This document shows positions 2,508 through 49,640 of a DNA stretch of 64,000 nucleotides, one piece after another. Source of the stretch: Elusimicrobium minutum Pei191 (GTDB lineage Bacteria; Elusimicrobiota; Elusimicrobia; Elusimicrobiales; Elusimicrobiaceae). Below the pieces are notes generated by a model. That model had not been told where the DNA came from, made no database searches, and saw only the letters and a list, made by a program, of their open reading frames with translations. How positions within the stretch are numbered: position 1 is the stretch's first letter; every line of letters starts with the position of its first letter. The stretch lies in assembly GCF_000020145.1 (NCBI RefSeq), contig NC_010644.1, positions 310,001 through 374,000 of the forward strand. Reading direction: 5' to 3'. The translations under genes were made by a program, and so were the position numbers.

Positions 2508-3230
2508 ATGAAACTTAAACTTTTTTTACTTTTTATAATAGCTTTTAGTTTGTGTGATGCAAAAACTCACGTTGAAATAGCGGAAGAGTTCAGCCCCAGC
2601 GTTGTTACAATTAATGTTGCTAACAGCCGCGGCGGCACATTTAACGGCACAGGTTTTATTGTAAGTCCGGACGGGCTTATAGCCACAAGCAGGCATGTTG
2701 TGGACGGCGCTATTTATATGAACGTTACATTTAATACGGGACTTGTGTCGGATGAAGCTGTTTTGATAGCGGTTTCGCCAAAAGTTGATATAGCTTTAAT
2801 AAAAATAAACGCGAAAGACTTGCCTACTGTGGTTTTGGGTGATTCGGACTATGCTTTACCCGGTTCTATAATAACAGTTATCGGTAACCCGAGAAGGTTG
2901 CAAAATACTGTAACGGAAGGCATTATATCCCAAGTCAGATTAATGAAAAAAGGTGTTGTGTGGCACCAAATAAGCGCGCCCATTTCCCCCAGCAGCAGCG
3001 GCAGCCCTGTTTTTAATGAAAACGGGGAAGTTATATCCGTTGCTTTTTCAACATACAAAGGTGCCGATAACCAAAATTTAAATTTTGCCATTCCCTCTAA
3101 TTATCTTGCCGAGCTTATGCTGGAAAAAGGTTATATACCGCCCATGGCGCAAAGAGTGCAAACTAATGAAAATAAATTTGCCTCCTATATCAAGCAATGT
3201 TGGGACACTTTAATCAAACTTATATCTTGA
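2508..3230 (+). CDS. Exported trypsin-like serine protease (HtrA-type, no PDZ domain)
   Basis: Secreted S1C/HtrA-like protease of 240 residues. Seen: an N-terminal signal peptide (MKLKLFLLFIIAFSLCDA), then a chymotrypsin-fold domain with catalytic His in ATSRHVVDG (about residue 63), Asp in VDIALIKI (about 96) and Ser in SPSSSGSPVF (about 164). DegP and DegS proteins normally continue into PDZ domains; here the chain ends soon after the protease domain with a short hydrophobic/charged tail, so it is a minimal version. Likely acts in the periplasm on misfolded or specific envelope proteins (inference). It precedes the three-paralogue cluster in the same direction, about 100 bases away, so a role in processing those proteins is conceivable but untested. 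Confidence 0.88.
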   Translation: MKLKLFLLFIIAFSLCDAKTHVEIAEEFSPSVVTINVANSRGGTFNGTGFIVSPDGLIATSRHVVDGAIYMNVTFNTGLVSDEAVLIAVSPKVDIALIKINAKDLPTVVLGDSDYALPGSIITVIGNPRRLQNTVTEGIISQVRLMKKGVVWHQISAPISPSSSGSPVFNENGEVISVAFSTYKGADNQNLNFAIPSNYLAELMLEKGYIPPMAQRVQTNENKFASYIKQCWDTLIKLIS

Positions 3231-3267
3231 CTTTTTTGTTTATATAGATATATTTATATATATAGCA

Positions 3268-3307
3268 TACAGTGCTTTCAGGGTTAAAATTCCGTTGAAA
3301 GGCTGTA
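3268..3307 (+). promoter_or_regulatory. Candidate cis-regulatory RNA hairpin, copy 1
   Basis: Hairpin in the leader of the first paralogue: TACAG (3268-3272) with CTGTA (3303-3307), a TG/G internal bulge, CTTTC (3275-3279) with GAAAG (3297-3301), and a 17-base loop beginning AGGG and ending TCCGTT. The same layout, with compensated pair changes but the same loop bases, recurs at 7444-7479 before the third paralogue. It ends 38 bases before the start codon. It matches no riboswitch class that I recognise. Confidence 0.55.
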
Positions 3308-3345
3308 AATACTTGTTTTAATGATATTTGTTTTTTGGGGATTAT

Positions 3346-5205
3346 ATGCGTTTAAGAATTAAAAAAAGAAAGGTTTTATTTTTTGTCGCGGGATTAGCGG
3401 CGGCGGGATTTCTTTTGCTGCCTGTTATTGATAAAGCTTTTTCTAAAACCATTCCGGGAAGCCTTAAAAAAGCCCAGCCGCAGGTTGCTTCTTCCAACCC
3501 GCTTGCTAGAGCTATGGAATTTTTATCCTCTTTTATTGATTTCGGTAATACAAAAAAAGATAAGCAGCCTGTTGTTTCCTCGCCTTCGGTTAACAGCCAA
3601 AAGCTTTCAAACTCGCAAAAATTTGCTTTGGGCCTTGCCTCTATTGACACTAATGCCCAAAGGGCCGCTATGTATGACGGTAATATGCCTGATTACGCTG
3701 ACAGGAATATAAAAATAAATTTTGAGGATTATGGCAGTGCGGAAGTAAAAGATAAAGACGGAAACTGGGTTTTGGTGCAGCAAAAAGAACCCGATGTCTT
3801 CAGCCGCGGCATGTACGAGTCTGATTTAAAAAAAGACCCCCTTTCTCTTATTGAGGGCAGAAATATTTCAGATAAAATAGCCCAAGACAACAAAGATAAG
3901 GAAGGTTTATACGCTTCCGCTTTACCGTTTAGCAAAATATTCGCGGACGGCGCCAAAAAAGGCATGTCGGCTATCGCTAAAACATTTGACGGTTCTTCAG
4001 GCGCAATGCTCGCTTCTTCTGGGCACGGCACCAGGCCTTCAGGTTATCCAACGGTTTCAGGCAGCGGGGGACTTTCTGGCTTTTCAAACGCTGGTTCAGG
4101 TGCAAATTTATCTGCTGCGGGCCAAATGGGCTTGCCTAGTTTAGAAAAACTTTTCGCCGACATTAGTGAAAAGGCTTCATCTTCAAACGACAGATACGAT
4201 TCCAACGGCAGGAAACTTTCCGATAAAGAAAGGGAAGAAACTAAAACAGCCGAAAGAGACGCCGACTATGAAAGGCGCAGAGGGGAAGCTTTTAGACTAG
4301 CCGAAGCAAAGGCCATACAAATGCTTGAAGAGTCCGCTAAAGGCCAAAAGGAAGTTGAACTTAGTGAGAAGGATATAACAAGAAACGCTGCCTGTGAGGA
4401 AGTTTGTTATGTGGATTCTTACCATCCGAATAAAGACGCGGTTCAAGCAGTACAAAAAGAATCTGTAATAAATATTTTAAACTCGGTGCTTCCTGATTTC
4501 AGAGAAGGGTTAAAAAAAGGGAACCCCGCCTATCAGCAATATCTTAATGATTATATTACAGAGACTGAAAAAGATTCAAGTCCTAAAGGTATGCAACCTA
4601 AATATGTTTATGTTTTAAAATCCAGTAAGGAAGACGCCGCCGGAACAGCTGAAGTATTAGAGAAAACCGGACGTGGCATAAGAACTGATTCTGCTTTTGA
4701 TATTAACGCCGGCAGGCAACAGGTAGAAAAAGAAATAGCCTCATGCACGGAGGAAGAGTGTTTTTGGGTGCCTAAAGTGGAAGGGTATTTTAAAGACGCT
4801 TCCATAGCGGCCGGCGGTAAAATGCGTGAACTTAATGTAAAGGGATCGGAAAATGACGAAAAAGGCTATCATTTCCTTACCAGAAGCCAATTACAGCAAA
4901 TAGTGGATTCTGATAGAAATACTGTTTATGTAACAGGGTCGCCTGTTACAAGTTTATCTTTACATAAAAATTTAAATGTTTACGCCTTGCAGACATTTCC
5001 TTTAGACACTAAATATTTGACCGGGCAGCAAAAAGGGGAAGAAATAAGCGGTGTTTCAGGGGAAATTAATAAAAAAACAGTAGAAAAAATAGAATTAATG
5101 GAAAACGAGTTTACGTCGGCTGAAAGGCAGAGGGTTCAGTCCGCGATTATCGGCCTTATGCAACAAGGCGAAAAGAAACAGAATGGCAGTACAAATAAAA
5201 AATAA
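3346..5205 (+). CDS. Tandem paralogue 1: membrane-anchored protein with Cys pairs
   Basis: Not recognised; about 619 residues. The ATG at 3346 is chosen because GGGG precedes it by five bases and both paralogues start with the same MR-basic pattern. Seen: basic N-terminus and one hydrophobic segment ending GFLLLPVIDKAFSK (signal anchor or uncleaved signal), an NPLARAMEFLSS motif, a conserved VKDKDGNWV and EPDVFSRGMYE block near residue 140, SALPFSKIF, a Gly/Ser-rich linker, a charged helical stretch (KEREETKTAERDADYERRR), and two cysteine pairs (CEEVC, CTEEEC). Paired cysteines after an export signal suggest disulfides outside the cytoplasm (inference). Heads a set of three paralogues. Confidence 0.8.
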   Translation: MRLRIKKRKVLFFVAGLAAAGFLLLPVIDKAFSKTIPGSLKKAQPQVASSNPLARAMEFLSSFIDFGNTKKDKQPVVSSPSVNSQKLSNSQKFALGLASIDTNAQRAAMYDGNMPDYADRNIKINFEDYGSAEVKDKDGNWVLVQQKEPDVFSRGMYESDLKKDPLSLIEGRNISDKIAQDNKDKEGLYASALPFSKIFADGAKKGMSAIAKTFDGSSGAMLASSGHGTRPSGYPTVSGSGGLSGFSNAGSGANLSAAGQMGLPSLEKLFADISEKASSSNDRYDSNGRKLSDKEREETKTAERDADYERRRGEAFRLAEAKAIQMLEESAKGQKEVELSEKDITRNAACEEVCYVDSYHPNKDAVQAVQKESVINILNSVLPDFREGLKKGNPAYQQYLNDYITETEKDSSPKGMQPKYVYVLKSSKEDAAGTAEVLEKTGRGIRTDSAFDINAGRQQVEKEIASCTEEECFWVPKVEGYFKDASIAAGGKMRELNVKGSENDEKGYHFLTRSQLQQIVDSDRNTVYVTGSPVTSLSLHKNLNVYALQTFPLDTKYLTGQQKGEEISGVSGEINKKTVEKIELMENEFTSAERQRVQSAIIGLMQQGEKKQNGSTNKK

Positions 5206-5291
5206 TAAATATAATCTGGGTTTAAAGACGGTAGAATAACAGGATAAAATTTTTGTTTATTATACTTTATTATGTTTAACCAGAGGAACTT

Positions 5292-7217
5292 ATGCGCTTA
5301 AGAATAAAGAAAAAGAAAATATTGTTTTTTGTTTTGGTGTTTGCCGTTGCGGGCTTTTTACTTTTACCCGTTATTGACGGCGCGTTATCTAAAGTCCCTG
5401 CTTATGCGTCGGCCAAAAAAGCGGTTCCGCAAGCCGCGTCTTCTAATCCTCTTACAAAAGCAATGGAATTTTTATCTTCAATAATTAAGGGCAGGAAAAA
5501 AGAAACGGCTTCCGCGCCTGAAAAAACCCTTCGCACTTTTACCGGCGGGCAAAGAGCCGCCTTAAATATAACACAATATGATGAACGCGCAGGTGTTTAC
5601 CAAGGTATTCATGATGGTAAGGAAATAAGAATTAAACTTGACGGCGACGGGATTTCTGAAATAAAAGACAAAGACGGAAATTGGATTATGGTGCACCAGA
5701 AAGAACCCGATGTTTTCAGCCGCGGCATGTATGATTACAATTTAAAAAATGACCCGCTTTCAATAATGGAAGGAAGAAGGATTTCAAACCAAATAGCTGC
5801 TGATAATAAAGACGCTAACGGTTTTTACGCTTCCGCTTTACCGTTTAGTAAAATATTTTCTGACGGAGCCAGAAAAGGTATTAACGCTATTTCCAATACT
5901 TTTGAAAATCCTGATACCATATTACAGGAAGGAAAAGAATATTACGCCGCTTTGGGAAATCCTTCCGGAAATATTTCAGGTTTCTCAAGAGGTAACGTAA
6001 GTATGCCTTCAGAAGGGTATTCTGGGCAGGAGTTAAGCGAAATTTTTGCTAAGGCCCAGCAAAAAGCATTTGATTCTTTGGCTATGTATGACCAAAATGG
6101 CAAGCTTTTAAGCGATAGCGATAAGGAGAAAGCCAAAGATAATGAAATGAGAGATACTCAAAGGCAGGCAAGAGGCACCGCATTCTTGGAGTTGCAAAAA
6201 CAAGCCAGAGAAAAATTGCAGACCGCCGCCCAAAAAGAAATTGAAAAAGGACCCGACAGCTGGATGCTTGATAAAATAGGGGAATATGACAGTATTGCCA
6301 AGGAAAAAATGCAAACGGGCAGACTGTCATGCGAGGCTGAAGAAAAAGCTGCATGCGGCTCATATAAACAAATTAATTCAAAAGATGTATATAACAAAGG
6401 AAAGGAAAATGCGGCTAAAGTTTTAGGAGCTTGGATACCGGGGTTTAATGATGATAAAGTGTTCTCCCCGGAAGAAAGGGAATCCATTATATACTCCTAC
6501 CTGTCGGGCAGTGAACATAGTTATAAAGGTGTAAATTGGAACGCGTTAAGACCTTCTTTTTTAGTTGCCGTTCCTGCTAATCCGAAAGGACTTGATTTAA
6601 CAAAAGAACAACAAAAAGAATTAGGTATTTCAGATAATACCATGGTAAAAATAAAGAAAGAATGCCAAGACGGCGGTTGTTCCTGGCTTGCTTTTTCATA
6701 TACCGGCGGACAATACAGCCAAATGGGCGAAAGACTTGGGTGGTCATACTCTAACGTCCCAAACAAAGTTCCCCGTATTTACAGTTCGGTAGATTCTGAC
6801 TGGGATTTGGTGAAAACTTCAGATTTAGAGAAGGAAATTCAAAAAGTTTCATCGGTAAAACCTTCAGATGAAAATTTTGTAATACCTCCATATATCGTTA
6901 CATCGGCAAGGCAAGGCGTGGAATGGGATAAAAAAAGAGTTTCATATCCTTCCTTAATTTTCCAGTTTGATAAAGGCAGCCATCTTGACAGAAGTATTGT
7001 GGGAGAGGTGGTTGAAGGAAACCCGCCTGTGGAACGGGCGTCGGATGAGCTTTTTAATGATTATCTTGCAAGAAACCAGGAATTTGCCGATAAAACAGAG
7101 GAATCTATTAAAAAGATTATAGAATCAAAAAGAAATAATACTCCTAAGAATTCAGTTGCAAAAGCGATTATGGATATCAAAAAAGCGGTTTCGGAAAAGT
7201 CAAAAAATAAGGAATAA
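5292..7217 (+). CDS. Tandem paralogue 2: membrane-anchored protein with Cys pairs
   Basis: Not recognised; 641 residues, start ATG preceded by AGAGGAA. It is closest to paralogue 1: the N-terminus MRLRIKK and GFLLLPVIDG, ASSNPLTKAMEFLSS, IKDKDGNWIMVHQKEPDVF and ASALPFSKIF are nearly the same, while the C-terminal third has diverged. Seen: a middle helical, Gln/Lys/Glu-rich region (about 270-340), cysteine pairs near LSCEAEEKAACG and CQDGGC, and a charged tail. No enzyme motif was found. It lies 86 bases after paralogue 1 without a clear terminator, so co-transcription is likely, although a TATACTTTATTAT element at 5261-5273 is shared with the promoter region of paralogue 3. Confidence 0.8.
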   Translation: MRLRIKKKKILFFVLVFAVAGFLLLPVIDGALSKVPAYASAKKAVPQAASSNPLTKAMEFLSSIIKGRKKETASAPEKTLRTFTGGQRAALNITQYDERAGVYQGIHDGKEIRIKLDGDGISEIKDKDGNWIMVHQKEPDVFSRGMYDYNLKNDPLSIMEGRRISNQIAADNKDANGFYASALPFSKIFSDGARKGINAISNTFENPDTILQEGKEYYAALGNPSGNISGFSRGNVSMPSEGYSGQELSEIFAKAQQKAFDSLAMYDQNGKLLSDSDKEKAKDNEMRDTQRQARGTAFLELQKQAREKLQTAAQKEIEKGPDSWMLDKIGEYDSIAKEKMQTGRLSCEAEEKAACGSYKQINSKDVYNKGKENAAKVLGAWIPGFNDDKVFSPEERESIIYSYLSGSEHSYKGVNWNALRPSFLVAVPANPKGLDLTKEQQKELGISDNTMVKIKKECQDGGCSWLAFSYTGGQYSQMGERLGWSYSNVPNKVPRIYSSVDSDWDLVKTSDLEKEIQKVSSVKPSDENFVIPPYIVTSARQGVEWDKKRVSYPSLIFQFDKGSHLDRSIVGEVVEGNPPVERASDELFNDYLARNQEFADKTEESIKKIIESKRNNTPKNSVAKAIMDIKKAVSEKSKNKE

Positions 7218-7538
7218 ATTAAAAAATACAAATCGGGCGTGGTATTATAAAAAGTAATTTATCTTTTTAAACAAATAATTTTGCTTTTTATAAAACGCCA
7301 TAAAAATGCTATAAAAACAATATATTTACGCGTGTTTTTGAGGAAAAGTGTTTTTAGACGTATTTTTTAATTAAAAATAGCTATCAGAACCACCTTGATT
7401 TTTTTAGAAACTTCACTATACTTTATTATATGCTTTTTGTAAATGCAGTGCCTTCAGGGATATCCGTTGGAGGACTGCAAAGTTTTATTTATCTGTGTTA
7501 TTCGGGTTTAATTGTTATGTCTGCAACGGAGGCAGTAT
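7218..7538 (+). promoter_or_regulatory. Intergenic leader with promoter, stem-loop and candidate RNA switch
   Basis: A 321-base non-coding stretch between paralogues 2 and 3. Seen in order: an extended imperfect stem-loop (GGCGT 7236-7240 with ACGCC 7295-7299, and ATAAAAAG 7247-7254 with CTTTTTAT 7284-7291), a sigma-70-like promoter TTGATT (7395-7400) with a 16-base spacer to TATACT (7417-7422), and the hairpin at 7444-7479. It makes paralogue 3 a separately transcribed gene with a leader of roughly 110 bases. Confidence 0.5.
7444..7479 (+). promoter_or_regulatory. Candidate cis-regulatory RNA hairpin, copy 2
   Basis: TGCAG (7444-7448) pairs with CTGCA (7475-7479) and CCTTC (7451-7455) with GGAGG (7469-7473), leaving the same TG bulge and AGGG...TCCGTT loop as copy 1 at 3268-3307. 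The 5' arm TGCCTTC (7449-7455) can also pair with GGAGGCA at the ribosome site of the downstream gene (about 7528-7534), which would give two exclusive folds, one hiding the site. Confidence 0.55.
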
Positions 7539-9347
7539 ATGCGGGTAAGGATTAACAGAAAAAAAATAGTGGTTTTGCTTACAATATTTGCTACAGTGGG
7601 TTTTTTGCTTTTACCTATAATTGACGGGACTTTAAATAAAAATGCGATATTAAACAGCCTAAACAATAAGAGGGCCGTTCCTCAGGTTGCTTCTGCCAAT
7701 CCTCTCACAAGGGCGATGCAGTTTATATCTTCTTTATTAGGTATGAACAGAGGCAGAACGCCTGTACTGGCTAAGGCGGAACTTAGTAAAGGTTCACCAA
7801 ACTCAGATAAACTTACTTCCGCTCAAAGGGCGGCTTTAGGTTTAATACCCGGTGGGGAAGAAGTCAGCGTTCCCAGCAGTTCGGATATGTCTTTTGACGG
7901 AAACAGTTCTATTTTTGATTTAGGATCTGAAGTAAAAGATAAAAACGGAAACTGGGTTTCTATAGATAAACACTCTGCAAAAAGAGCATCCGCATCAGAT
8001 ATAAACAAGCAAAAAAATCAAAGCGCGTCCCGTTCAAATAAAAATTCTTATACCTCAAAACACCAATACGCTAATGATTCCTCCGGCGGGCCTTTAACAA
8101 AAAGTTTTACGGAAGGCGCCGCGAGAGGTATTTCAACAGGTGCGGGAGCCGCGGGCTCTAAATATTCTTTGGCAAAAGCCAGTATCGGCACTGGCGCTGG
8201 CGGAACGTTTTCTGCGTCAACCTCGGGCGCGGTTAATAATTTTTCAAGGGGCGATGTTTCTTTGGGCGGCGGCGCGGACGGGTTATCTCTTCCTAATATA
8301 AATAAAGCTTTTTCAAGCGCAACCCAAAAAGTAGCCGAGGCAAATGCTTATAAGGATGAAAACGGAAAGCAGCTGAGCGCTAAAGAAAAAACATCGGTAA
8401 GAGAGCAATACTTAAGAGAAAAATATAATGAACACATGAATGAAGCGTGGGATATGGTGGAAGAAGCGGCAAAAAACCGGTTATTTTCCGGCAGAATAGG
8501 TCAAGAAGCTGATTTTTATGAAGATGAAATAGTTTCTTCTGATTGTAAAGACGGCAAGTGCGAATATAAAAGCTCCTCTAAATTGATAGCTGAAAGAGAA
8601 AAAAATGCCGCCATAAATATTTTAAATGCTGTCGGCGTTAACGGTAACGATGCTCTTATAAGCAGTTATACGGAGGGGAAAGCTTTATCAGAATACAGAC
8701 CCGATATAGTATATGTTTATATGTCTTTAGATGATATTAGCAACAAAAGCGATAGCGAAGTAGTATCAGCAGTATGGGCAGGTAACACACCGGAAATAGA
8801 AGAAACTCAAAAACAAAAAAATGAAAGGAAAAAGCTTGCCGAAGATCTGAGGAAAGATTCTTCTTTATGTAATAAAGGATGTTTTGTGATTTCTAAAAAT
8901 ACGCCTTATTTTGAAGATGTCGCCAAATGCGCGGGCGGGAAAGTTTACGATGTTAAATCAAAAATAAGTAATTCCTCCAAAGATTATATTGTTATTGACG
9001 GCAAAAGAGCGGCGGAAGAGTTAAAAAACAAGCGTAATATTACGGTTGTTACCACCTCCAAGGCAACAAGTATAAAAGTTTATGATGTTTTGGGCGTGCC
9101 CGCGGCGAATATTATTTCAGCCGATAGAAATGATTTCTTGGGGTCTAAAAATGTTAGCGGAATGCAGCAATTTTCAAATAAAATTAACAGATCAATAGTC
9201 AACAAATATTCAATGCTTAACAAAAGCTTTAATGAAAAACAAAAAAATTATTTCGAACGCGAATTAGCTGACAGGACAGAATCGGCCTCAGCTTCAGCGG
9301 GAAACGGTGTTAATATAACAAAAACTTCCTCATATTTAAAGAGATAA
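7539..9347 (+). CDS. Tandem paralogue 3: membrane-anchored, Gly/Ser-rich protein with Cys pairs
   Basis: Not recognised; about 602 residues from the ATG at 7539, chosen because GGAGG lies just upstream and the paralogues begin the same way. Seen: a hydrophobic anchor ending GFLLLPIIDGTLNK, VPQVASANPLTRAMQFISS, EVKDKNGNWVSID, then a Ser/Gly/Ala-rich segment that replaces the EPDVFSRG block of its sisters, YKDENGKQLSAKEK, cysteine pairs CKDGKC and CNKGC, and a C-terminal alpha/beta-looking part (DIVYVYMSL, NITVVTTSKATSIKVYDVLG) matching NTVYVTGSPVTSLS of paralogue 1. The most diverged of the three. A strong terminator follows directly. Confidence 0.78.
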   Translation: MRVRINRKKIVVLLTIFATVGFLLLPIIDGTLNKNAILNSLNNKRAVPQVASANPLTRAMQFISSLLGMNRGRTPVLAKAELSKGSPNSDKLTSAQRAALGLIPGGEEVSVPSSSDMSFDGNSSIFDLGSEVKDKNGNWVSIDKHSAKRASASDINKQKNQSASRSNKNSYTSKHQYANDSSGGPLTKSFTEGAARGISTGAGAAGSKYSLAKASIGTGAGGTFSASTSGAVNNFSRGDVSLGGGADGLSLPNINKAFSSATQKVAEANAYKDENGKQLSAKEKTSVREQYLREKYNEHMNEAWDMVEEAAKNRLFSGRIGQEADFYEDEIVSSDCKDGKCEYKSSSKLIAEREKNAAINILNAVGVNGNDALISSYTEGKALSEYRPDIVYVYMSLDDISNKSDSEVVSAVWAGNTPEIEETQKQKNERKKLAEDLRKDSSLCNKGCFVISKNTPYFEDVAKCAGGKVYDVKSKISNSSKDYIVIDGKRAAEELKNKRNITVVTTSKATSIKVYDVLGVPAANIISADRNDFLGSKNVSGMQQFSNKINRSIVNKYSMLNKSFNEKQKNYFERELADRTESASASAGNGVNITKTSSYLKR

Positions 9348-44831: not shown

Positions 44832-47800
44832 TTAAAAAGCCAAACGGAAGCCTAAATTGCCGCCGAAGGCTTGTATCTTGCTTCCTGTTTCAAAAGTAGC
44901 CTGGCCATATACATAGATATCTTTGTTAAACTGATAATTCAGACCCAAGGCCGTTTCAAAAGCGCCGCCTGAAAGGTTTGTTTCGCTAACCGCGCCGGAG
45001 TAGCTGACATCGCCCTTTCCCATAAACGTTTGGCTGTAAGCAAGCTCTGCGTAAGGTTGTGTAAAAAGACCTGTTTGCCTTTTATGCATATACGCAAGCA
45101 TTACCGAGGCTTTTGTTATTATATATGAGGCATTTTCATATTTTAAAGAACCGTTGCCGTTTTCAACATTTGTACTGTCTCCCGAAGCGTTTAAAAATGC
45201 CAATTCGGCTTTAGGTTCAACCCGCCACTGTGTACCGCGACAAGACATAATCTGAAACTCTTTACCGAATTCCGCGCTCATAGTAAACAGGTTTCTTCTG
45301 GGGGAATATTTAAGCTCGGTTCCTAAAGAAGAATAGTTAACCATATCTAAGTTTGTCCAAAAATTTCTTATGGTTAAATCTAAAAAATATGAAGAAGGGG
45401 TTATAAAAGTCATATAAGCGCCTACGCTGGGGGCATCGCCGTTTCCTTTACTGTAAAAACCGTTATCCTGTTTTGTTTTTACATTACCAGCAGTCATATA
45501 ACCACCCATTAAACCGAGATAAATTCTGTTTTCGTCGCCTTCTCTCATTAAAAAATCATACCCGGCCTCAAAACCAAATATTGACATGTCTGTTTCTATC
45601 AGGTCATCTACGGTAATTTGCTTTCCGTATGATCTTGTCCAAACGCCGTGTTGTTTAGATGAGTTGCCGAAATTACGTAAGTCGCCTAAACGTTTTTGAA
45701 GGGAATTCATGCCTGTTTGTGCCATAACAACATTAAGCTGCGGTATGTTTAACATTGTTTTAAAAGTGTCTGTCATGGCGTTAGATAAGCGAAGGAAGAA
45801 AGACTGATTGTCCGACTGGTCTTTATTTCCCTGTAAAAGGAAATATTTAAAAGCGCCTGTATCAATGCTGCCGCCGTTTAACACAAATGAATTGGCGGAA
45901 ATGTGCGCGCCGGCCTTAGCCTCTACTATTTTTATTTCAAGAGGGTCCGTACCGGGAAGAGTTGTGCTTGTATCATTTATAAACAAAGTGGTAGAACCGT
46001 TAGCTGAGCCGCTTACGGAAATCATATCCGTGCTGCCGCCGTTAACGTCTGTATTTAAATAGATATTGCCATTATGACCCATATAATTTTCAAGCGTCAG
46101 AGTATTATAAGCCCCGGACGTTTGAGAACCTATAAAAATATCAGAAGAGCTATTAGTAAGCGAGGTCATATTGGAAGAATTAATCATATTCCACGCGCTG
46201 TCCGTAAACGATACATGTGCGGCGGTATCCGCGGCTGTTGTTATAACGCCGCTTAGGAAGGCATCTTTTGCGTTAAACTCAGACTTGCCAACCATTACGC
46301 TTGGATCATTATGGTCAGCTATAGCCGTATTAACCAAAAGCGCGCTGTTACCTGTTGCCGTAACATTCTCTATATTATAAACGCCATAACCTATGGTTTG
46401 GAACAAAGTATCTTGCGTAAGCATGTTTATGGTTGAATCTTTTATATTAATTTCCGCGCCACCCTCTTGGCTTGATTCGGCTATTGCTAAATCATCATTT
46501 TCGGTTTGTATATACATGCCTTCAACATTAACCTGTGATAAAGCCACTTTTGTACCCGCAGACGGCCTGTTAACGTTCCATTGCGCAAAAAGGCCTGATT
46601 GCAAATTATCTTTAAAGGATAAAATATTAGATCCGTTACCTTTTATATTCATTGCGCCGCCGCCAAAGGTAGAGGCAATGGCATAGCTGTTATTTTCAAG
46701 GTATATATCCATATTGGTTATATTAAAATACTCGCTGCCTTCATACTGCGCGTTCTCCTGGGTAATAAGAGCATAGGTATTGCCGGAACCATATATTGTA
46801 TGCAACCCCGATGTGCTGTTTATATCAATCGTAGCGCGTGAAGCAAGAATTCCGTTAGCGTTATCGGTAACGATTATATTGGAATCCTTCATTATGGCTT
46901 CGCCGTTGTACCAGGCTATTATGCCGAAGTTCTGGTTCTCAATATTTATAACGTTCATATTTTCGGCGTAGAATCTCCCGCCGTGCACGTCCATACCCAT
47001 AGAGCTGCCGCTTAAACTTTTATCACCGTTATTTCGCAAGCGGATAATGTTAGTGCCTGTTGAGGATATTGCGTTTAAAACACCGCCGCCTGAGACATAA
47101 AGTCCTATTGCGCCGTTATCCGTCGCGGTAATATCAGTGTCCGTAACATTAAAAGTTATATTTCTACCTAATGAAAGGCCCGTGCCTGAGTTAGACGTAA
47201 CCTTTGTGCCGTTATTTGTTAGCACAAGTTCTTTAACGTTAAAAACCAGCGGATCTTCCAAAGATGAGCCGTTTAATACTATGCCTGAAGCGCCGTTGTC
47301 TTTTGCTACAAAGCTAAATTCAGAATCGACCTGTGTCTGCCAGTCAATATTACCCGCCAAGCTAAAGCCGGTTCCGCCGTTATTAAAAGCGTTGATCTGC
47401 GTAAAGTTTATAAGCTGGGTTGAACCTGTAAATTTTGCGCCGTCTCCGCCGTTGTTTGAAAAGATCATCTTCCCTTCGGTGTTATTACTTTTTAAGGAAA
47501 GAGTTCCTCCGCTTGCCAACATTCCCGTTCCGCCGTTGCCGGAAATGTTTATCCCATCGACATTGGCTATTTCTAAATTATCCAGCCTTAAATATACGCC
47601 GTGGTTTCCGTTGCCGGTTACGCTTAAATCACCCACGCCGAAGACCCTGCCTGCCGCGTCTATAGATACGCTGCCCGAGTAAACGTGCAGCCCGTATCTG
47701 CCGTTATTATTAAGCTGGAGCGAAGCTAAATCCTTAAGCTCCAAATTAGCCGCGCTGGAATATATGCCGTCGCTGGCAGCTCCCGTATTATTGCTTGAAC

Positions 47801-49640
47801 TTATTGAAATCTGCTCACCCGCAATATTTGTTATTGTTGAGTTTACGCCTAAATTAAGCCCTGTACCGCCGTTGCCGTTTGCCTCTATGATTGCAAAATC
47901 CTGAATTGTAAAAGAAGTTGACTGTGCAGCGCTTATGCCCGCGCCGATATTATTATTTACGCTTAATTTAGAGGTTAGGCTGCCGCTTCCATCTAAAAGA
48001 AGAGAGCCGTTTGCGGATGTGGATATACCGGTAATGTTTCCTTCTGCGGTAATAGTTTCCATGTTATTGAGCTTTAAAGAGCCTGAAGCCGCCTGTATAC
48101 CGACGCCCCCTGATCCCGTACTGTTTTTATTGCCTGAGGCGCTTAAAGTTGAGTTAAGGCCGCCGTTTATTTCAAGTTCCGCCGTTGCCCCGTTAACCAA
48201 AAGCCCCGCTGCAGCCGCCGTAGCAGAAACCCCGTTGCCGTCCAAAGTTACCACACCGTTATCGGTAAGATTCATAGTTGTTTTACCGTTGTTTACGGCA
48301 AACCCGTACCTTCCGTTACCGGTGGATTCAAATATATCAACCCTGTCCAAAACAAGATTTGCTGCAGTTGATAAAAAGCCGAAAGTTCCCACGCTTGTAT
48401 TATTATTTGTTTTTATGGTAAGATTCTGCCCCGCCGCTGTCTCTATAGTGCTTGCGCCTGAGATGACAAAACCGTTGCCGCCGTTGCCGCTGGCTTCAAT
48501 TTCTCTGAAGTCCTTAATTGTGACAAGCCCCGCAGAAGAAAACCCGGTGCCCGTATTATTGTTGACCGAAAGTTTAGACGCGGCAGATCCGGTGCCCGTT
48601 AAATTCAATGTAGTGTTTGCCGCTGTGGTGATACCGCTGGCATTGCCATTTACATTCATTGTTTCTACGCCGCTTATATCTAAAGAAGCCGAAGCGCCCG
48701 TAACGGAAACGCCTATATTGCCGTTATTATTAATATTTATAGTCGAAAAACCGCTTATATCCGTACTGCCGCTGTTAATAAGGCCCGTATAAGTGTTGTT
48801 GCTTATGCTTAAAGAGGATGTCGCACTGCCGTTGCCTGACAAAGTTAAATTTGTCGATGCCACATTTTGTACGCCGGTATAATTGCCGTTAATATCTACG
48901 GACTGCATATTTGTCATTGTTACGGCGGAGCCGGCGGTGCTGATATATATACCTTGCCCAGCGGTAAGGTTGCCTGAACCGTCCTGGCGGCCGTTGCCAG
49001 AGGCGGTGAATGTTGTGGTGCCGTCCGCTTTACCGGTAATTGTAATAGAACCGCCGCTTGCAGCCTGCATGCCAATGTTAGTGTTACCGTTAAAAATAAT
49101 GTTTTGGTAATCCGTTATTGATACCTCTGAGCCAGCGCCGGTAGAAAGAATACCCGTGCCGCCTGTTGTTGTCGCATTTTTATTATTGCTGGAGTTAATC
49201 GTATTTGTCCCGCCGCCGATAAAATTGAGTTTAGAACCTGCGGCGTTTGAAATACCGAGAACGCTGCCGCTGATATTTACATCCGCATTGTTTATGTTAA
49301 GCGTTGTCGCGCCTGTCAGATTTAACCCCGTACCTGATGTGCCTGCGGCGTTTCTGTTATCCGTTAAATTTATAGCGCCGCCGTTACCGTTAACCGTAAC
49401 AACCCCGCCGCCTGTAAGCTGAAATCCCTGCGCTGTATTATTAGACGCCGAAATTGTAAAACCGTCAAGGTTCAAAACGCGGTTTGTAACCGAGCTGTTA
49501 AAAATAATGCCGGCGGTGCCGCCGTCATAGGCGGAGTTGTCGGTAAGAGTATGGTCCGCCGAGGTCAGTACAAGCTGTGCCGCATTTGCGCCGCTTGATA
49601 AGAAAATAAAGATTGCCGTTATTTTAAATATATTTTTCAT
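44832..49640 (-). CDS. Giant autotransporter with Gly/Asn-rich repeat passenger
   Basis: 1602-residue type V secreted protein. Seen: signal peptide (KNIFKITAIFIFLSSGANA), a passenger of about 1300 residues built of short repeats around NGNGGTGL (for example ANGNGGTGLNLG, SGNGGTGMLASGG, SGNGGNGFVISG) alternating with hydrophobic beta strands (LNLTGATTLNINNADVNISG), as expected of a right-handed beta-helix, then a linker and a C-terminal barrel of about 270 residues (GVWTRSYGKQITVDDLIETD, IYLGLMGGY) ending LGFRLAF with terminal Phe. Family: AIDA/Pmp-like autotransporters; likely surface adhesin or shield (inference). AGAGAG lies before the ATG. Confidence 0.92.
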   Translation of the reverse strand: MKNIFKITAIFIFLSSGANAAQLVLTSADHTLTDNSAYDGGTAGIIFNSSVTNRVLNLDGFTISASNNTAQGFQLTGGGVVTVNGNGGAINLTDNRNAAGTSGTGLNLTGATTLNINNADVNISGSVLGISNAAGSKLNFIGGGTNTINSSNNKNATTTGGTGILSTGAGSEVSITDYQNIIFNGNTNIGMQAASGGSITITGKADGTTTFTASGNGRQDGSGNLTAGQGIYISTAGSAVTMTNMQSVDINGNYTGVQNVASTNLTLSGNGSATSSLSISNNTYTGLINSGSTDISGFSTININNNGNIGVSVTGASASLDISGVETMNVNGNASGITTAANTTLNLTGTGSAASKLSVNNNTGTGFSSAGLVTIKDFREIEASGNGGNGFVISGASTIETAAGQNLTIKTNNNTSVGTFGFLSTAANLVLDRVDIFESTGNGRYGFAVNNGKTTMNLTDNGVVTLDGNGVSATAAAAGLLVNGATAELEINGGLNSTLSASGNKNSTGSGGVGIQAASGSLKLNNMETITAEGNITGISTSANGSLLLDGSGSLTSKLSVNNNIGAGISAAQSTSFTIQDFAIIEANGNGGTGLNLGVNSTITNIAGEQISISSSNNTGAASDGIYSSAANLELKDLASLQLNNNGRYGLHVYSGSVSIDAAGRVFGVGDLSVTGNGNHGVYLRLDNLEIANVDGINISGNGGTGMLASGGTLSLKSNNTEGKMIFSNNGGDGAKFTGSTQLINFTQINAFNNGGTGFSLAGNIDWQTQVDSEFSFVAKDNGASGIVLNGSSLEDPLVFNVKELVLTNNGTKVTSNSGTGLSLGRNITFNVTDTDITATDNGAIGLYVSGGGVLNAISSTGTNIIRLRNNGDKSLSGSSMGMDVHGGRFYAENMNVINIENQNFGIIAWYNGEAIMKDSNIIVTDNANGILASRATIDINSTSGLHTIYGSGNTYALITQENAQYEGSEYFNITNMDIYLENNSYAIASTFGGGAMNIKGNGSNILSFKDNLQSGLFAQWNVNRPSAGTKVALSQVNVEGMYIQTENDDLAIAESSQEGGAEINIKDSTINMLTQDTLFQTIGYGVYNIENVTATGNSALLVNTAIADHNDPSVMVGKSEFNAKDAFLSGVITTAADTAAHVSFTDSAWNMINSSNMTSLTNSSSDIFIGSQTSGAYNTLTLENYMGHNGNIYLNTDVNGGSTDMISVSGSANGSTTLFINDTSTTLPGTDPLEIKIVEAKAGAHISANSFVLNGGSIDTGAFKYFLLQGNKDQSDNQSFFLRLSNAMTDTFKTMLNIPQLNVVMAQTGMNSLQKRLGDLRNFGNSSKQHGVWTRSYGKQITVDDLIETDMSIFGFEAGYDFLMREGDENRIYLGLMGGYMTAGNVKTKQDNGFYSKGNGDAPSVGAYMTFITPSSYFLDLTIRNFWTNLDMVNYSSLGTELKYSPRRNLFTMSAEFGKEFQIMSCRGTQWRVEPKAELAFLNASGDSTNVENGNGSLKYENASYIITKASVMLAYMHKRQTGLFTQPYAELAYSQTFMGKGDVSYSGAVSETNLSGGAFETALGLNYQFNKDIYVYGQATFETGSKIQAFGGNLGFRLAF

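What the first reader, a model, noticed from the sequence alone, without database searches (positions are those of the whole stretch)
3268..7479. Hairpin with compensatory base changes in front of two paralogues: candidate RNA switch
Hairpins at 3268-3307 and 7444-7479 share loop bases AGGG...TCCGTT and a TG bulge while their stems differ by compensated changes (TACAG/CTGTA versus TGCAG/CTGCA; CTTTC/GAAAG versus CCTTC/GGAGG). Conserved unpaired bases with covarying stems point to a selected RNA structure rather than a chance repeat. I match it to no riboswitch class I know.
Basis: partly seen in the sequence, partly recalled or inferred. Interest (0 to 1): 0.75.

Follow-up and report, generated by a model that had tools for sequence, protein, structure and literature searches.

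The report
Paired 5' leader hairpins, Elusimicrobium paralogues
Two genes for related envelope proteins in a gut bacterium carry almost the same small RNA hairpin at the start of their messages, and relatives carry differently spelled hairpins at the same place, which suggests a local mRNA-control element rather than a new kind of metabolite switch.

Summary
The two hairpins are real: 15 pairs each, 29 bases shared, two fully compensated and two half-compensated pair changes, none broken. They precede paralogues 1 and 3 of an unnamed membrane-anchored family; paralogue 2 has an unstructured leader. The two genes have diverged to 29% protein identity and 51% identical synonymous third positions, so the hairpin was held, or re-copied, while everything around it drifted. 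But this sequence occurs only twice: no further copy in its genome or in 340 genomes of the phylum, and no Rfam match. What does recur is the position: in a sister genus, 18 of 62 leaders of the same gene carry a 5' hairpin between promoter and start codon (GGnGC..GCGGCC), with covarying outer stem. It is found only before this gene, and its model does not recognise the window's hairpins. Best reading: a single-gene, lineage-specific structured 5' leader that tunes mRNA lifetime or translation. A ligand riboswitch is not supported; an attenuator is disfavoured because the stem-to-T gap is 3-4 nt, against 0-2 nt at 42 of 47 terminator-like sites.

The parts
3268..3307 (+). Leader hairpin 1: 6 bp, bulged G, 7 bp, bulged G (3' arm), 2 bp, 8-nt loop
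7444..7479 (+). Leader hairpin 2, same shape, 4-nt loop, stem changes compensated
3227..3254 (+). Promoter-like TTGACT-16-TATATT upstream of hairpin 1 (consensus match only)
   Evidence: 15 such sites found in the region against 9.8 +/- 3.1 in shuffles, so not significant by itself
7395..7422 (+). Promoter-like TTGATT-16-TATACT upstream of hairpin 2 (consensus match only)
3346..5205 (+). Paralogue 1 (619 aa, N-terminal membrane helix), start codon 38 nt after hairpin 1
5292..7217 (+). Paralogue 2 (641 aa); its upstream region 5206-5291 has no hairpin of this kind
7539..9347 (+). Paralogue 3 (602 aa), start codon 59 nt after hairpin 2
2508..3230 (+). Trypsin-like protease (Pfam Trypsin_2) directly upstream of the paralogue cluster

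Best explanation
The hairpins are structured 5' leaders: an RNA stem-loop that forms near the 5' end of the mRNAs of two of three paralogous membrane-anchored proteins. It acts in cis on that one message, most likely by slowing 5'-end-dependent decay and/or setting translation, as 5' stem-loops do on ompA and papA mRNA. Shown here: the hairpins, their retention between old paralogues, and a covarying hairpin at the same leader position in 18 of 62 relatives' copies of the gene. Inferred: that the promoter lies just upstream in the window, that the hairpin is transcribed near the 5' end, and the effect on stability or translation.
For: Hairpins. Held while synonymous sites drifted to 83 of 164 identical (paralogues 1/3) against 29 of 36 aligned hairpin bases. 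Relatives (genus g2): TTGAAA-n17-TAGACT or close to it, followed within about 4-18 nt by a hairpin, in 18 of 62 upstream regions read; covariation score 0.289 against at most 0.073 in any slid control pairs and 23 cells changed on both sides, 0 of 500 shuffles as high for cells or score. RNAalifold gives the same hairpin on the model-fitted alignment, and its inner helix plus three outer pairs on an unfitted MAFFT alignment. The 18 lie in two separate protein clades. Two further leaders have strong hairpins of other sequence at this place (L053 z -3.5, L068 z -3.3): structure and place recur more than letters. The genome has RNase E/G. 5' hairpins that stabilise mRNAs: passages of PMC3997798 and PMC7509114.
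Against: No transcript data, so start sites are unknown; the window's promoter matches are not above chance and would leave about 7-15 unpaired nt before the hairpin, whereas classical 5' stabilisers sit at the very end. 44 of 62 g2 leaders, both same-genus relatives (the gene begins 5 nt after the protease gene) and paralogue 2 lack this hairpin, so it is dispensable for the family. The inner motif is kept in sequence across both g2 clades, more than a plain stabiliser needs. R2 does not match the window's hairpins, so common descent of the two forms is not shown. A6 was fitted to its model and leans towards it; on the 12 training rows alone 50 of 500 shuffles reach the covariation score.
Confidence: 0.45

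Rival explanations
1. The hairpin is the binding site of a specific RNA-binding protein or small RNA that recognises the bulged inner segment and represses or activates this one message.
For: In g2 the inner motif GGnGC...GCGGCC, with one or two extra Gs on the 3' arm, is kept across two protein clades while the outer stem is rewritten with compensation. In the window both bulged Gs and the inner CAGGG..CCGTTG are kept.
Against: Found before one gene only; inner motifs of window and g2 differ. CsrA is unlikely as the factor: no CsrA match in the genome and copy 1 lacks GGA.
Confidence: 0.22
2. The hairpin is a transcription attenuator or pause element: hairpin plus T-rich tract just after the promoter ends or delays transcription.
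For: In g2 the hairpin is followed by TTTTTATT or similar in all 18 leaders, a tail also seen at ordinary terminators there; R2 picks up terminators elsewhere.
Against: Stem-to-T gap is 3-4 nt in 17 of 18 (read by eye); 42 of 47 perfect-stem hairpins before a T tract in 97 family loci have a gap of 0-2. The window's copy 1 has no T tract directly behind it. No antiterminator partner was seen.
Confidence: 0.12
3. No RNA function: the pair is a relic of tandem duplication or of gene conversion of a short palindrome, kept paired by palindrome-correcting mutation.
For: Only two copies, in one genome; lineage-specific paralogue expansion; 6 random transitions keep pairing in 6.6% of trials.
Against: Similarity stops at the hairpin's ends, flanks do not align by eye; covarying leader hairpins in g2.
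Confidence: 0.1
4. DNA operator: a palindrome bound by a transcription regulator just downstream of the promoter.
For: Palindromic, next to the promoter in g2; inner inverted repeat kept in sequence.
Against: Extra bases on one arm in both forms break dyad symmetry; the outer stem of g2 exists in at least three differing complementary spellings (CCGG/CCGG, CCATT/AATGG, CCTTTT/AAAAGG), which an operator does not need.
Confidence: 0.07
5. Ligand-binding riboswitch.
For: 5' leader position, covarying stems.
Against: No Rfam match at gathering score or E<=5; about 40 nt, one hairpin, variable loop, no alternative fold seen; one gene family only.
Confidence: 0.04

Closest known systems
5' stabilising stem-loops of bacterial mRNAs (ompA, papA type)
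   Same: Single-gene stem-loop in a short 5' UTR between promoter and ribosome-binding site, gene for an envelope protein
   Different: Not shown to be at the 5' terminus or to stabilise; inner motif more conserved than such a role needs
Autoregulatory protein-binding leader hairpins (for example the rne 5' UTR stem-loop)
   Same: Hairpin with conserved bulged bases in one mRNA leader
   Different: The encoded protein is membrane-anchored with no RNA-binding domain found; no binding partner known
Intrinsic terminators / attenuators
   Same: In g2: GC-rich hairpin and T-rich tract in a leader
   Different: Stem-to-T gap of 3-4 nt, no antiterminator seen; window copy 1 without adjoining T tract
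Riboswitches of Rfam 15
   Same: Structured 5' leader
   Different: No family matches; no aptamer-like complexity

Membership tests
5' stabilising stem-loop (ompA/papA type) | Stable stem-loop in the 5' UTR | tested here: met
   (fold); the 5' UTR place is inferred from the promoter in g2
5' stabilising stem-loop (ompA/papA type) | Stem begins within a few nt of the 5' end | tested here: inconclusive
   g2: hairpin begins about 4-18 nt after the -10 hexamer; window: about +7 and +15 from consensus promoters that are not above chance
5' stabilising stem-loop (ompA/papA type) | Prolongs mRNA half-life | not testable with these tools
   needs an experiment
Known riboswitch or other Rfam 15 family | Match to a covariance model at gathering score | tested here: not met
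Riboswitch (general) | Conserved aptamer core before several functionally linked genes | tested here: not met
   one gene family only; R1 and R2 over 340 genomes
Riboswitch (general) | Ligand-dependent change of structure | not testable with these tools
   needs probing
Intrinsic terminator / attenuator | Stem followed directly by a T tract | tested here: not met
   gap 3-4 nt in 17 of 18 g2 leaders (by eye); control 42 of 47 sites at 0-2; window copy 1 without adjoining T tract
CsrA-bound leader | CsrA present and GGA in the loop | tested here: not met
   no CsrA match in the genome; copy 1 has GGGUU
Same element as the g2 leader hairpin (model R2) | Match of the window hairpins to R2 | tested here: not met
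   filters off, best 6.6 and 4.7 bits and not at the hairpins

The most novel reading that the evidence does not exclude
A fast-evolving, family-specific regulatory RNA of Elusimicrobiaceae: the leader of one envelope-protein gene keeps a bulged-G hairpin at a fixed place while its letters are rewritten between lineages, because a co-evolving RNA-binding factor reads it. It would be a cis-element class defined by place and shape rather than sequence, invisible to covariance-model searches that start from one lineage.
Probability: 0.15. Interest if true: 0.6.

Novelty: new member of a known kind. Interest (0 to 1): 0.33.

Why it matters
If true, it gives a little-studied phylum a cis-acting RNA element with a defined gene, and a case in which a leader hairpin is kept by place and shape while its sequence turns over within one bacterial family. 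It also warns that two covarying copies in one genome need not mean a riboswitch. Practical value is modest until transcripts are mapped.

Tried and rejected
More copies by sequence: R1 on own genome, family (90 genomes) and phylum (340 genomes), plus an exact pattern over GTDB contigs. Weak R1 hits were followed: L008 and L105 lie inside coding genes (apolipoprotein N-acyltransferase-like and DXP-synthase-like by my reading of the sequences, not by a family search), L111 inside a substrate-binding-protein-like gene; L009 and L010 were only read as sequence. The GTDB pattern hits number 7, about what I estimate for chance (5-6, my own arithmetic), all in unrelated taxa. A protein scan of GTDB contigs with A2 found no relative.

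R2 hits outside the gene: 14 weak family hits were checked; each is covered by a stop-free frame of 73-979 codons in one of six frames (weak evidence), and several look like terminators. L114 (G139) is a terminator-like stem between two genes and L115 (G148) lies between convergent genes; L116 and L117 were only scored. A faint R1 match before paralogue 2 (5232-5264, 5.4 bits) may be a remnant or chance; not used.

Identity of the protein: no Pfam or NCBIfam family (the few hits at E 0.006-0.009 each match 1 of 51 members). AlphaFold of paralogue 1 (pLDDT 67.7) and of its C-terminal part (pLDDT 80.0): no Foldseek match at E<=0.001; the VIA-align second look lists class III substrate-binding proteins (BtuF, FhuD, heme binders), best Z 8.6-8.7 over 118-133 residues at about 3 A, little above the range the tool calls common. 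A lead only.

Papers: 'Elusimicrobium minutum' (listing), 'Elusimicrobia'+'riboswitch' (listing), 'Elusimicrobi'+'structured RNA' (listing): none of the listed titles or abstract starts describes this leader; most subscription journals are not in the library. PMC3071783, PMC7509114, PMC3997798: passages only.

Full report
Where it is. The window is bases 310001-374000 of a single-contig genome of 1,643,562 bases. From memory this length is that of Elusimicrobium minutum Pei191; no tool named it. Three paralogous genes follow each other at 3346, 5292 and 7539, behind a trypsin-like protease gene. Protein identity is 38% (1/2) and 29% (1/3).

The hairpins. At 3268-3307 and 7444-7479 stand two stem-loops of one design: 6 bp, a bulged G on the 5' arm, 7 bp, a bulged G on the 3' arm, 2 bp, and a loop of 8 or 4 nt. 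With short flanks they fold at -14.9 and -19.2 kcal/mol; 10 and 1 of 200 shuffles do as well. Among 12,792 overlapping 40-nt stretches of the window's + strand 1.3% and 0.25% fold as well as the bare hairpins. Of 40 alignment columns 36 have letters in both and 29 are identical. Of 15 pairs, 11 are the same, 2 changed on both sides, 2 on one side, none broken. All six stem changes are transitions; under random transitions such a result has a chance of 6.6%, under random substitutions 0.06%.

Why it is more than leftover similarity. Between paralogues 1 and 3 only 83 of 164 third positions agree in codons for the same amino acid, and 45% of aligned coding bases agree, while 29 of 36 hairpin bases agree and the flanks do not align by eye. 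Either the hairpin is under constraint or it was copied later by gene conversion with edges at the hairpin. Paralogue 2 has an unstructured leader (-0.7 kcal/mol for 5255-5295).

No more copies of this sequence. A covariance model of the pair (R1) finds nothing else in the genome at E<=10, 3 weak hits at E 0.25-0.78 in 90 family genomes, and one weak hit (E 0.02 for that genome) in 340 phylum genomes. Two of these four lie inside coding genes (L008, L105); L009 and L010 were only read. Rfam gives nothing.

What does recur. The protein family is present in 64 of 90 family genomes: the own genome, both same-genus genomes, and 61 of 66 genomes of a second genus, g2. I read the upstream regions of 64 places (2 same-genus, 62 in g2). 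In both same-genus genomes the gene starts 5 nt after the protease gene, with no room for a leader. In g2 18 of 62 leaders have TTGAAA-17-TAGACT (or close to it), then a hairpin with outer stem (CCGG/CCGG, CCATT/AATGG or CCTTTT/AAAAGG) and inner motif GGnGC...GCGGCC, then 3-4 nt, then TTTTTATT or similar, then 13-23 nt to the ATG. The model R2 (built from 12 of the 18) finds all 18. Counted on the fitted alignment: 93.4% of cells paired, 5 pairs and 23 cells with both sides changed, covariation score 0.289; slid controls reach at most 0.053, and 0 of 500 shuffles reach the observed score. On the 12 training sequences alone covariation is weak (50 of 500 shuffles reach the score): the signal comes mainly from the comparison of the clades. 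One pair (14-31) is broken in 5 of 18. RNAalifold gives the same hairpin on the fitted alignment; on an unfitted MAFFT alignment it gives the inner helix and three outer pairs. The 18 fall into two protein clades of 13 and 5, apart from each other on a quick tree, so the hairpin was lost repeatedly, or gained twice, in g2.

Is it the same element? By place, size, a hairpin with extra G on the 3' arm, and the gene, it looks alike; by sequence model it is not recognised. Two further g2 leaders carry strong hairpins of unrelated sequence at the same place (L053, z -3.5; L068, z -3.3); a third (L067) is not better than shuffles. Hairpins at this place seem to come and go, or to be rewritten.

What it does. 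Strong R2 matches are found only before this gene in g2; its weak hits elsewhere look like terminators (two followed) or lie over open frames. A switch that serves a regulon or a metabolite pathway is therefore unlikely. The T tract in g2 suggested an attenuator, but the gap between stem and T tract (3-4 nt in 17 of 18, read by eye) differs from terminators in the same loci (0-2 nt in 42 of 47; that scan asks for perfect stems), and copy 1 in the window has no adjoining T tract. DNA operator: the asymmetrical extra bases and rewritten complementary outer stems speak against it. CsrA: no match in the genome. What remains is a structured 5' leader acting on its own message. RNase E/G is present, and 5' hairpins are known to stabilise mRNAs (passages of PMC3997798; PMC7509114). 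That the inner motif is kept in both g2 clades leaves room for a protein that reads it. Neither step has been tested.

The gene product. The family has an N-terminal membrane helix, a low-complexity stretch and a C-terminal domain with two invariant and two nearly invariant cysteines; no Pfam or NCBIfam family. A weak structural lead points to class III substrate-binding proteins.

Verdict. Real hairpins, probably functional, as a lineage-specific 5' leader element of one envelope-protein gene. Not a demonstrated switch and not a new riboswitch class on present evidence.

Noticed in passing
3346-9347: Three tandem paralogues of an unnamed membrane-anchored family with four conserved cysteines, found in 64 of 90 family genomes, behind a protease-sized open frame in nearly all places read; no Pfam or NCBIfam family; weak fold resemblance to class III substrate-binding proteins.
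   Followed up: partly
3321-3362, 5272-5301, 7517-7555: Before each paralogue a short ATG reading frame (13, 9 and 12 codons) overlaps the start codon of the main gene out of frame; may be chance in AT-rich DNA.
   Followed up: no
5232-5264: Faint match to the hairpin model (5.4 bits) upstream of paralogue 2: possible remnant.
   Followed up: partly
L053:1421-1465, L068:2532-2590: Strong leader hairpins of unrelated sequence at the same place in two further relatives.
   Followed up: partly
L074 (G016:C2): A g2 genome with two tandem copies of the gene, the only other duplication among the places read.
   Followed up: no
44832-49640: Open reading frame of 1602 aa on the - strand, not looked at.
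   Followed up: no
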